Shown piece after piece: positions 8,408 through 10,887 of a DNA stretch of 64,000 nt. The notes beneath the pieces are model-generated. The model saw only the letters and a list, made by a program, of their open reading frames with translations, was not told the origin of the DNA and did not search any database. Positions within the stretch are counted from its first letter, which is position 1. Every line of letters starts with the position of its first letter. The DNA lies in NCBI RefSeq assembly GCF_016888135.1, contig NZ_JACSWB010000172.1, forward strand, positions 62,001-126,000, in the 5' to 3' direction. The translations under genes and the position numbers were made by a program. Source of the stretch: Leptolyngbya sp. CCY15150 (GTDB lineage Bacteria; Cyanobacteriota; Cyanobacteriia; RECH01).

Positions 8408-9244
8408 TTAGGTTGCCGTTTGCAGCAGCCATAGGCCGGTGTAGGTGACCCCAGAGTCATCGGGCTGTACTAGGAGGAAATGTAGACCCTGGCTGGTTTG
8501 TAGGCGTTGTTGATAGGTCTGTCCGGCGGCGATCGCTTCGGGATCATCAAAGGTGGTGAGAATCCAGCGATCCACCAAACCAGCTTCGAGAATCAGTCCA
8601 TCGGGAGCACCGGGTATGTAGTGGAGCGATACTGGATCGGCCTGCTCCAGCCAGCGGGCCAGGGCCATAGACTGCCGCCCCCCGTAAATCACGACACCGG
8701 GCACCATGGTGGTGGAGGCAAGTTTTAGGCTTTGGGGGGTTAAGGCTTCGGGCCAAACGCGAATGGGAATGGGGCGATCGCCAAACACTAGGTCGAGGTC
8801 ACTGGCAGCGATCGCCGCAAAGCGCCAGCTTTCTCCCCAGAGGTTATCGGCCAGGGGCAGCGGCGGCGGGCGGTCGAGGGCGACGGGGTCGTAGGCTTCC
8901 CCGGTGTAGTTGGGCAGGTGGGGATAGTCTAGGGCCCGCTGTTCCAAAAGGGCGTGGAGCTGGGGGGTATGGCGGGTGGCTTCCACCGATAGGCCCAGAC
9001 TCTGGCAAGCGGTTTCCAGCAGGCTAAGGGATTGGGGACGAAACACCTGGAGGCGATCGGGCTGGCCATGGAGATTGATGGCGGTGGTGATCTGCGCCGT
9101 CAGCCATGCGCTGCTGAGGGAAGGTTGGGGGCAAGCGGCGATCAGTAGAGCGCGATCGCCCTCACAGACCACAACTTCCCATAAAGGATTGCCCGCCTCA
9201 TCCCGTAGGGGGCGACGATAAATGTCCGCTTGCCAAATTCTCAC
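8408..9244 (-). CDS. Tab2/Atab2-family RNA-binding protein (copy 1)
   Basis: 278 residues starting with GTG (MRIWQADIYRRP). Family hallmarks: the N-terminal W-x-D-x-Y/F-x-R-P segment, then WEVVVCE, a central PNYTGEAYDP linker, and a C-terminal GLHFLLVQPDDSGVTYTGLWLLQ block. Tab2/Atab2 proteins are A/U-rich RNA-binding factors needed for translation of photosystem I (psaB) and other photosynthetic mRNAs in chloroplasts; the cyanobacterial role is less clear. A second, clearly related but distinct copy lies at 59074-59937 and shares the same start, linker and ending. It sits downstream of the groES promoter region on the same strand as the histidine kinase next to it. Confidence 0.85.
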   Translation of the reverse strand: MRIWQADIYRRPLRDEAGNPLWEVVVCEGDRALLIAACPQPSLSSAWLTAQITTAINLHGQPDRLQVFRPQSLSLLETACQSLGLSVEATRHTPQLHALLEQRALDYPHLPNYTGEAYDPVALDRPPPLPLADNLWGESWRFAAIAASDLDLVFGDRPIPIRVWPEALTPQSLKLASTTMVPGVVIYGGRQSMALARWLEQADPVSLHYIPGAPDGLILEAGLVDRWILTTFDDPEAIAAGQTYQQRLQTSQGLHFLLVQPDDSGVTYTGLWLLQTAT

Positions 9245-9291: not shown

Positions 9292-10887
9292 TCAGGTATT
9301 GTAAATCGGTAGGAGGACATGGAAGATCGATCCTTCCCCGGGTCGGCTACGCACGGATACCGAACCGCCACAGTTGAGGGCCAGTTGCTGCACCATGGAC
9401 AATCCTAGGCCGGGCCCAGACGACTGATCTTCTTGATGGCCCCGTAGGCGATAGAACGGCCGGAAAACTCGCGATAGCTCTGCCGGTGCAATTCCCACGC
9501 CGGTATCTTTAAATTCAAGCTGGATGTAGTCACCCTGCTGCTTGGCAGACACCCAGACCTCGCCGCCGGGGGGGGTAAATTTAATCGCATTATCCAGCAG
9601 GTTGATGACAATCTGGCTGAGCCATTTGTGCAAACAAGACACGGCGGGTAGATCGCTGGAAATGGTGTAGGCCAGCATCATGCCGCGTTCGCGGGCGAGG
9701 GGCTGATAGGTGCTGACGACGCCGGGCACCACGTCCGATAGACGAATCGGCTGCATCAGGGCATGGTCGGCATGGTCTTCTAGCTGCATCAGGTCTAAAA
9801 CGCTGGTGATCAACGCACTCTGGCGATCGCATTCCTTGGTGAGCAGCTCCATGTAGCGCTGGCGCTGGGGCGGCCGTAGGTTGGGCGATTCCAGCAGGGT
9901 CAGGGCTGTCTTCATGGTGGTGAGGGGGGTGCGCATCTCCTGCCCCACGTTTTTGAGGAATTCATCTTTGATCCGCAGACGATTGGTTAAGCCTTCGCAT
10001 TCGAGCTGGAGGGTGGCGACTTGCTCCGATAGTTTGCGATCGGCGGCGCTACGATGCCACAGCTCTTCCTGGTAAAACATCTGTCGACTGTAGAATTGTC
10101 CGAGCAGGGCTGGGCTGGGGGCGATCGCCTCCCCTTGGGTGAGGTTATCCCACTGCTCCAACAGCGCCTGACCCTCGGGGCTGGGTTCGCTGAGCTGTCC
10201 TGCCTGAATCGCCTGATGCACGCCGGAGAAGACCTGCTGAATCGTTTGGGGAATAAAGGAGCAAATGCAGAGGAGGGGGTGTTTCCGCCGACTGGGGTTA
10301 CCCTCATCACTCAAAATTGCCGTGGTTTGGGGACGAATACTGGGAGGTGCCGGGTCAGGACTGGTGCTGGGACGGACGCTGCGCGGACGATGGGCCAGCA
10401 GCAGGACGGAAAATCGAGGCGATCGCACCATCAAAAAATATTCCCGTCGCAGTTGGCTATGGGCCGCTAGGGGGAGGGAGGTCGCCGAACAGATTGTAAA
10501 CGGCGAGGGCAGGGGCTCGATAAAATGAATGTCTGAATCCGCGTCGGAGTCCCAGTCGAAGATGTTGGAGTCGCCGCTTACGGGGCGAGAGGGGGGGCGA
10601 TCGCTCTCCTCAGGGGTATGGTAGGCAGATTGGGGATTTTTAAGAATATAGATAGCGCTGTCGGGATGGGCCGACCGTTGGTAGCGCTCGACTTCACTCG
10701 ACCATGCATAGCCCCGAGGCAGCTTCATCCACAGCGTTGCGGGTTCTTGCGCCTCACTGAGCACATCCATGATCGCCGACAGCATCGACTTGAACGTGGT
10801 GGGACTGACCTGCAGGGGTTGGGAAACCTGCTCGATGCTGGCTGCTAGCTCATACAGAGACGAGTCTTGAAAACTGGATGCGTTCAT
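9292..10887 (-). CDS. DICT-domain histidine kinase-like protein lacking the phospho-acceptor His
   Basis: 531 residues from ATG 10887 (an in-frame TTG lies 21 bases upstream). The N-terminal region (about 1-230), with segments LWMKLPRGYAWSSEVERYQ, YFLMVRSPRFSVLLLAHRP and HPLLCICSF, looks like a DICT sensory domain. A coiled linker (about 270-310), a HisKA-like helix pair and a HATPase domain follow; the latter has an N box (LLDNAIKFTP), G1 (DTGVGIAP) and G2 (GPGLGLS). The H box, normally S-H-E-L-R-T-P, reads GQEMRTPLT, so the phosphorylated His is Gln at about residue 316; I checked this on the DNA. ATP-binding motifs are intact. It may be a signalling pseudokinase or an allosteric partner of another kinase (inference). 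No response regulator is adjacent. Confidence 0.8.
   Translation of the reverse strand: MNASSFQDSSLYELAASIEQVSQPLQVSPTTFKSMLSAIMDVLSEAQEPATLWMKLPRGYAWSSEVERYQRSAHPDSAIYILKNPQSAYHTPEESDRPPSRPVSGDSNIFDWDSDADSDIHFIEPLPSPFTICSATSLPLAAHSQLRREYFLMVRSPRFSVLLLAHRPRSVRPSTSPDPAPPSIRPQTTAILSDEGNPSRRKHPLLCICSFIPQTIQQVFSGVHQAIQAGQLSEPSPEGQALLEQWDNLTQGEAIAPSPALLGQFYSRQMFYQEELWHRSAADRKLSEQVATLQLECEGLTNRLRIKDEFLKNVGQEMRTPLTTMKTALTLLESPNLRPPQRQRYMELLTKECDRQSALITSVLDLMQLEDHADHALMQPIRLSDVVPGVVSTYQPLARERGMMLAYTISSDLPAVSCLHKWLSQIVINLLDNAIKFTPPGGEVWVSAKQQGDYIQLEFKDTGVGIAPAELSRVFRPFYRLRGHQEDQSSGPGLGLSMVQQLALNCGGSVSVRSRPGEGSIFHVLLPIYNT

What the first reader, a model, noticed from the sequence alone, without database searches (positions are those of the whole stretch)
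9292..10887. Histidine kinase homologue with Gln in place of the phospho-acceptor His
The H box reads V-G-Q-E-M-R-T-P-L-T where the family has S-H-E-L-R-T-P. I confirmed it on the minus-strand DNA (GGGCAGGAGATGCGC). The ATP-binding N, G1 and G2 boxes are intact. Such pseudokinases can still bind ATP and regulate other kinases allosterically. It also has a DICT-type input domain and no adjacent regulator.
Basis: partly seen in the sequence, partly recalled or inferred. Interest (0 to 1): 0.6.

Follow-up and report, generated by a model that had tools for sequence, protein, structure and literature searches.

The report
Histidine-less kinase with complementary partner
A cyanobacterial signalling protein keeps its ATP-binding site but has lost the histidine it would normally phosphorylate; the loss is an old family trait, and a related protein with the opposite defect suggests, but does not prove, that the two form one split kinase.

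Summary
The window ORF (9292-10887, minus) is a DICT-HisKA-HATPase_c protein with Gln316 (CAG) at the phospho-acceptor position and intact N, G1 and G2 boxes. It belongs to a family ("A") found in 175 of 388 sampled cyanobacterial genomes. In 131 non-redundant members read, the acceptor is Gln 118, Arg 7, Glu 3, His 2, Leu 1; Gln is ancestral and the ATP site is intact in 123 of 129 covering rows. It is neither an error nor a recent mutation. The neighbourhood gave a second family ("B"): homologous beyond the kinase core, His in 60 of 60 rows read, G1-box Asp in none. B lies within 4 kb of A in 22 of 94 loci, 13 of them convergent within 300 bp, is present in 171 of 175 A-bearing genomes, and shares with A a Cys-x-x-Gln signature absent from 38 other kinases of this genome. 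I propose that A phosphorylates B's histidine in trans, a natural split kinase. This is inferred: B also occurs in 198 genomes without A, and no interaction was tested.

The parts
9292..10887 (-). CDS, DICT-HisKA(Gln)-HATPase_c protein, 531 aa (family A)
   Evidence: ATG 10887 fits the start of homologues
10387..10866 (-). DICT sensory domain, residues 8-167
   Evidence: Pfam PF10069, 3.6e-27
9970..10113 (-). predicted signalling helix leading into the HisKA domain, residues 259-306
   Evidence: secondary structure of a low-confidence model
9778..9969 (-). HisKA (DHp) domain, residues 307-370
   Evidence: Pfam PF00512, 1e-11
9940..9942 (-). codon CAG, Gln316 in place of the phospho-acceptor His
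9820..9831 (-). Cys353-x-x-Gln356 signature in DHp helix 2, shared with family B
9304..9627 (-). HATPase_c (CA) domain, residues 421-528
   Evidence: Pfam PF02518, 3e-28
9589..9591 (-). N-box Asn433
   Evidence: Asn in 129 of 129 covering family rows
9493..9507 (-). G1 box, D461-x-G-x-G465
   Evidence: D461 129 of 129, G463 128 of 129, G465 124 of 129
9403..9417 (-). G2 box, G491-x-G-x-G495
   Evidence: G491 125 of 129, G493 126 of 129, G495 126 of 129

Best explanation
The protein is an ATP-competent histidine-kinase homologue (no membrane segment looked for or assumed) that cannot phosphorylate itself at the usual place. Shown here: the acceptor His was replaced once, early in the family, by Gln and has stayed non-His, while the ATP site is conserved; a homologous family B, often a neighbour, has kept the His and its H box and lost the ATP site. 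Inferred: A and B pair through their DHp domains; A's ATP domain, gated by its DICT domain and linker, phosphorylates B's histidine in trans; B then passes the phosphate to a response regulator not identified here. In genomes without A, B must be served by another kinase or work as a phosphotransferase or phosphatase.
For: Acceptor in 131 rows: Q118 R7 E3 H2 L1. Gln ancestral, 7 amino-acid changes against 33 CAA/CAG synonymous changes among Gln rows. ATP-site residues intact in 123 of 129 covering rows, in 7 of 7 rows whose acceptor became Arg. B: His, Glu, Arg, Thr, Pro of the H box in 30 of 30 rows from A-bearing genomes; the G1 Asp in 0 of 60 rows. A and B align outside the kinase core (hhalign 93.5%, 2.4e-7, against about 2% for B with two other DICT proteins). 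B within the held stretch (usually about 5 kb each side) in 22 of 94 loci, 18 convergent and 4 upstream on the same strand. A without B only 4 times in 175 genomes, three of them under 80% complete. Cys-x-x-Gln of DHp helix 2: A 45 of 45 sampled, B 59 of 60, other kinases 0 of 38. An engineered pair of the same two types, MtrB H305Q and N419D, has been used in vitro to ask whether phosphorylation goes in trans (PMC5956149, passages).
Against: B is in 369 of 388 genomes, 198 of them without A at the threshold used, and its ATP site is dead there too, so A is not B's universal kinase, and co-occurrence alone says little because B is near-universal. B was not found near A in 72 of 94 loci, nor in the window's genome (B is on contig C174). 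The core tree does not make A and B sisters: five other kinases intrude, at weak support. The MtrB pair did not complement because MtrB works in cis, so complementary defects need not function together. A's acceptor returned to His in two genomes that still have B next door. Six of 129 rows have lost part of the ATP site. No dimer model or binding data.
Confidence: 0.4

Rival explanations
1. DivL-like allosteric pseudokinase: A binds ATP and a phosphorylated response regulator or another kinase and changes that kinase's activity, transferring no phosphate.
For: DivL has a Tyr conserved in place of the His, with Ala in Magnetospirillum, keeps the H, N, G1, F and G2 boxes, and senses a phosphorylated regulator (PMC4211667, passages); family A shows the same pattern, Gln with Arg, Glu or Leu in places, and a well-conserved DHp helix 2.
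Against: Does not by itself explain a sibling with the opposite defect encoded next door.
Confidence: 0.33
2. Dedicated phosphatase: without the acceptor His, A keeps the E-x-x-T/N motif and only dephosphorylates a response regulator.
For: E or D at +1 with T or N at +4 in 101 of 131 rows. That some His-to-Asn/Gln mutants of bifunctional kinases keep phosphatase activity is recalled, not from a call; the one search for it found no paper.
Against: In the 7 Arg rows the +4 residue is P, V, P, T, L, T, I, so the motif is kept in 2 of 7 while the ATP site is kept in 7 of 7: selection follows the ATP site rather than the phosphatase motif.
Confidence: 0.15
3. Neutral decay, sequencing error or recent mutation at the acceptor codon.
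For: Two tips have His, one base away from Gln.
Against: 129 of 131 rows lack His; 33 synonymous against 7 amino-acid changes at the codon; ATP site conserved; the close relative L041, 98.7% identical over the protein, also has Gln.
Confidence: 0.01

Closest known systems
DivL (Caulobacter, Tyr at the acceptor position)
   Same: Histidine-kinase homologue with a conserved non-His acceptor and retained N, G1, F and G2 boxes
   Different: DivL has PAS domains, belongs to alphaproteobacteria and has a known partner network; family A has a DICT domain, Gln or Arg, was looked for and found here only in cyanobacteria, and its partner is unproven. No test here makes them one family.
ChpT / Spo0B (DHp-like phosphotransferases; from recall)
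   Same: Resemble family B: a phosphorylatable His with an ATP domain that has lost ATP binding
   Different: Family B keeps a HisKA-type H box (Pfam HisKA 18 of 18) and a long N-terminal region; one of 18 members gave a weak HPTransfase match (0.062)
RetS-GacS heterodimer
   Same: Natural hetero-association of two histidine kinases (PMC12189002, passages)
   Different: There one kinase inhibits the other; here one partner would supply the ATP domain and the other the histidine
MtrB H305Q / N419D and CheA complementation pairs
   Same: One partner lacks the His, the other the ATP site; MtrB even has His to Gln
   Different: Engineered, not natural; MtrB does not complement (cis). CheA complementation was seen only as a cited title

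Membership tests
Active HisKA histidine kinase | phospho-acceptor His in the H box | tested here: not met
   Gln316; 129 of 131 family rows lack His
Active HisKA histidine kinase | N, G1 and G2 boxes of the ATP domain | tested here: met
   123 of 129 covering rows
Active HisKA histidine kinase | HisKA and HATPase_c domains | tested here: met
Pseudo-histidine-kinase (DivL-like class) | acceptor replaced across orthologues, other boxes kept | tested here: met
Pseudo-histidine-kinase (DivL-like class) | regulates another kinase without own kinase activity | not testable with these tools
   needs biochemistry
DICT-domain signalling proteins | DICT domain over the Pfam cut-off | tested here: met
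   95.3 bits against 23.8
Split (heterodimeric) histidine kinase | partner with His but a dead ATP site | tested here: met
   family B; B of this genome: L290
Split (heterodimeric) histidine kinase | the two partners occur together and only together | tested here: not met
   A with B 171 of 175, but B without A 198 of 213
Split (heterodimeric) histidine kinase | physical pairing and phosphoryl transfer | not testable with these tools
   no dimer modelling offered; needs biochemistry

The most novel reading that the evidence does not exclude
A and B are products of an ancient duplication of a DICT-linked histidine kinase that decayed in complementary ways, one keeping only the ATP-driven catalytic half and the other only the phospho-acceptor half, so that in about half of the sampled cyanobacteria the working kinase is an A-B heterodimer; a conserved Cys in DHp helix 2 and a glutaredoxin-like gene upstream of murE would tie it to redox state and to cell-wall synthesis.
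Probability: 0.3. Interest if true: 0.85.

Novelty: new variant of a known kind. Interest (0 to 1): 0.6.

Why it matters
Pseudo-histidine-kinases with a fixed acceptor loss are known from few cases, DivL being the best that I found. Here is a family in 175 of 388 sampled cyanobacterial genomes, plus a near-universal sibling with the opposite defect. If they act together, one can study how a homodimeric kinase became a heterodimer, and cyanobacterial signalling maps would have to treat both as one unit. If they do not, B still raises the question of who phosphorylates a conserved histidine in nearly every cyanobacterium examined.

Tried and rejected
Rejected: sequencing error, recent mutation or neutral decay. 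Another His in the DHp domain taking over: no column between residues 305 and 372 has His in 10% or more of the rows, although 68 of 131 rows have some His somewhere in that stretch. Phosphatase-only reading: weakened, not excluded. Co-occurrence of A and B as proof: rejected because B is near-universal. Sisterhood of A and B in the core tree: not supported.

Led nowhere: the genome-contig scan with the single protein gave only 4 loci. The AlphaFold model from 5 sequences is poor (pLDDT 61.7, pTM 0.42); I did not use it beyond secondary structure and ran no fold search. NCBIfam names nothing over its cut-off in the part of the table shown, 25 of 89 matches. Literature: searches for 'DICT domain', pseudo-histidine kinase, cyanobacterial kinases lacking His, H399Q/H139N (0 papers), ChpT-like in cyanobacteria, Prochlorococcus kinases and complementation listed no paper that I recognised as describing either family; passages read in PMC7063779, PMC9927289, PMC3198397, PMC9953108 and PMC13421787 do not mention them. 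Most subscription papers are not held, so this is no proof of absence from print.

Limits: the H box was read in 131 non-redundant rows, not in every one of the 175 genomes; rows with the same last 200 residues were merged (169 loci to 132 rows), and one row, L036, does not cover the H box. In some searches the first alignment (A1) left out L017, the row with His, and some divergent rows; they are in the later counts. Outgroups for the trees come only from the window's own genome. Trees are FastTree, quick. B was read in 60 rows of one alignment: 30 from A-bearing genomes, the best-scoring ones, and 30 from genomes without A that I picked by hand for spread of family codes, plus 20 neighbour rows (a 21st locus, L164, left out because its gene is in two pieces). 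One search used 45 randomly and specially chosen A rows of 131.

Full report
WHAT IS THERE. The ORF at 9292-10887 on the minus strand encodes 531 residues with DICT, HisKA and HATPase_c domains, all above Pfam cut-offs. The H box reads KNVGQEMRTPLTTMKT; the codon at the acceptor position is CAG at 9942-9940. The N, G1 and G2 residues are present. Flanking genes are a Tab2/Atab2-type protein 47 bp downstream, then groES and groEL, and an NAD-dependent epimerase upstream (groES and groEL named from the sequence by recall). No receiver-domain gene is among the ORFs read.

IS IT CHANCE? In the same genome 88 HisKA matches were listed. I read 86 others: 85 have His, one has Glu. Loss of the acceptor is rare in this genome.

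THE FAMILY. A first search of 59 genomes found matches in 30; nearly all showed Gln. A profile of 25 members then found family A in 175 of 388 genomes of the class, one copy each except G308 with two. After merging near-identical rows I had 132, 131 of which cover the H box: Gln 118, Arg 7, Glu 3, His 2, Leu 1. Codons of the Gln rows are CAA 63 and CAG 55. On a FastTree of the core with the acceptor column left out, family A is one clade (support 0.995) against 38 other kinases of the own genome; the ancestral state is Gln, with 7 amino-acid changes but 33 CAA/CAG changes among the Gln rows. Gln to His needs one base and is seen only at two tips (L017, L141). This is purifying selection for a non-His residue, in practice Gln. 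The six ATP-site residues checked are all intact in 123 of 129 covering rows. In the seven Arg rows the ATP site is intact 7 of 7 while the phosphatase-type E-x-x-T/N is intact 2 of 7. So the ATP site is what selection keeps. The deepest branches, L040 and L086, are single sequences on long branches, and support within the clade is uneven.

NEIGHBOURHOOD. In 48 of 94 loci with flanks, murE (TIGR01085, 8.4e-165 for one example) lies directly upstream on the same strand, mostly 75-500 bp away, and a glutaredoxin-like gene (Pfam Glrx-like) lies before murE in 35 of the first 77 loci. The window's genome does not have this order. A second conserved neighbour proved more telling: a HisKA protein, family B, within the held stretch in 22 of 94 loci, 18 convergent downstream (13 within 300 bp) and 4 upstream on the same strand, spread over nine family codes (codes).

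FAMILY B. It is the mirror image of A. All rows have His in the H box (20 of 20; 60 of 60), but the ATP domain is degenerate: Asp of G1 in 0 of 60, the Gly corresponding to G493 in 2 of 60, Asn of the N box in 9 of 60. Pfam's HATPase_c scores only 0.038 on the own genome's member. The window's genome has B on contig C174 (sequence). A and B profiles align over 363 columns, including residues 129-280 of A, outside the kinase core; cut to the N-terminal parts alone the match stays at 93.5%, E 2.4e-7, whereas B against two other DICT proteins of the genome gives about 2%. Both carry a Cys-x-x-Gln in DHp helix 2 (A 45 of 45, B 59 of 60) that none of 38 other kinases of the genome has (four of those have gaps there). 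The core tree, however, places five other kinases among A and B, so sisterhood is suggested by the shared N-terminal region and signature, not by the tree.

B is in 369 of 388 genomes. Of the 175 with A, 171 have B; the four without are 78, 69, 96 and 68% complete. But 198 of the 213 without A also have B, and B's ATP site is dead in the 30 of these that I read. In those 30 hand-picked genomes the best A-profile hits, where any passed 1e-48, were generic kinase cores no better than 3e-58, and most in long frames, so I take A to be missing there. In the same 30, the Glu after the His is lost in 4 (at least three of them of one family code, f19) against 0 of 30 with A; this fits a kinase step that depends on A but is too few events to weigh.

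MECHANISM. Shown: A cannot use the canonical acceptor; A's ATP site is under selection; B has an acceptor without a recognisable ATP site; the genes are linked in many lineages. Inferred: A and B form a heterodimer in which A phosphorylates B. Histidine kinases are dimers and some phosphorylate in trans; the pair MtrB H305Q and N419D is the engineered version of this test, and there the answer was cis and no complementation (PMC5956149, passages), which shows both that the design is sensible and that it need not work. The main rival is a DivL-like allosteric role (PMC4211667, passages), for which the conservation pattern is equally good. The existence of B next door tips me slightly towards trans-phosphorylation. 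A dedicated phosphatase is less likely because its motif is lost where the ATP site is kept.

NOVELTY. Acceptor-less kinases are a known kind. The breadth of this one, the fixed Gln, and a natural complementary sibling are, as far as my ten paper searches show, not described in the held open library; most subscription papers are not held.

Noticed in passing
L270:1547-2668 (-), own genome contig C120: A second acceptor-less HisKA protein: receiver-HisKA-HATPase_c with Glu at the acceptor position (ASEELRGPL) and no recognisable G1 box.
   Followed up: partly
L290:217-1872 (-) and 369 of 388 genomes: Family B: a near-universal cyanobacterial HisKA protein with conserved His and dead ATP site, also where family A is missing; its phosphate source there is unknown.
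   Followed up: partly
48 of 94 related loci, e.g. L150:2936-4853: Conserved order glutaredoxin-like gene - murE - family A, a possible link to cell-wall synthesis or redox; absent in the window's genome.
   Followed up: partly
window 9820-9831: Cys-x-x-Gln in DHp helix 2, near-invariant in families A and B only; the Cys (128 of 131 rows) might be a redox switch.
   Followed up: no
L017 and L141: Two independent returns from Gln to His (CAT, CAC) inside the family, both with family B close by.
   Followed up: no
L236, own genome contig C289: A second DICT kinase, with a normal His (HELRTPLST), so DICT input does not imply acceptor loss.
   Followed up: no
window 8408-9244 (-): Tab2/Atab2-type RNA-binding protein gene directly downstream on the same strand, 47 bp gap; not recognised among the 15 most widespread neighbour clusters printed for the first 77 loci.
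   Followed up: no
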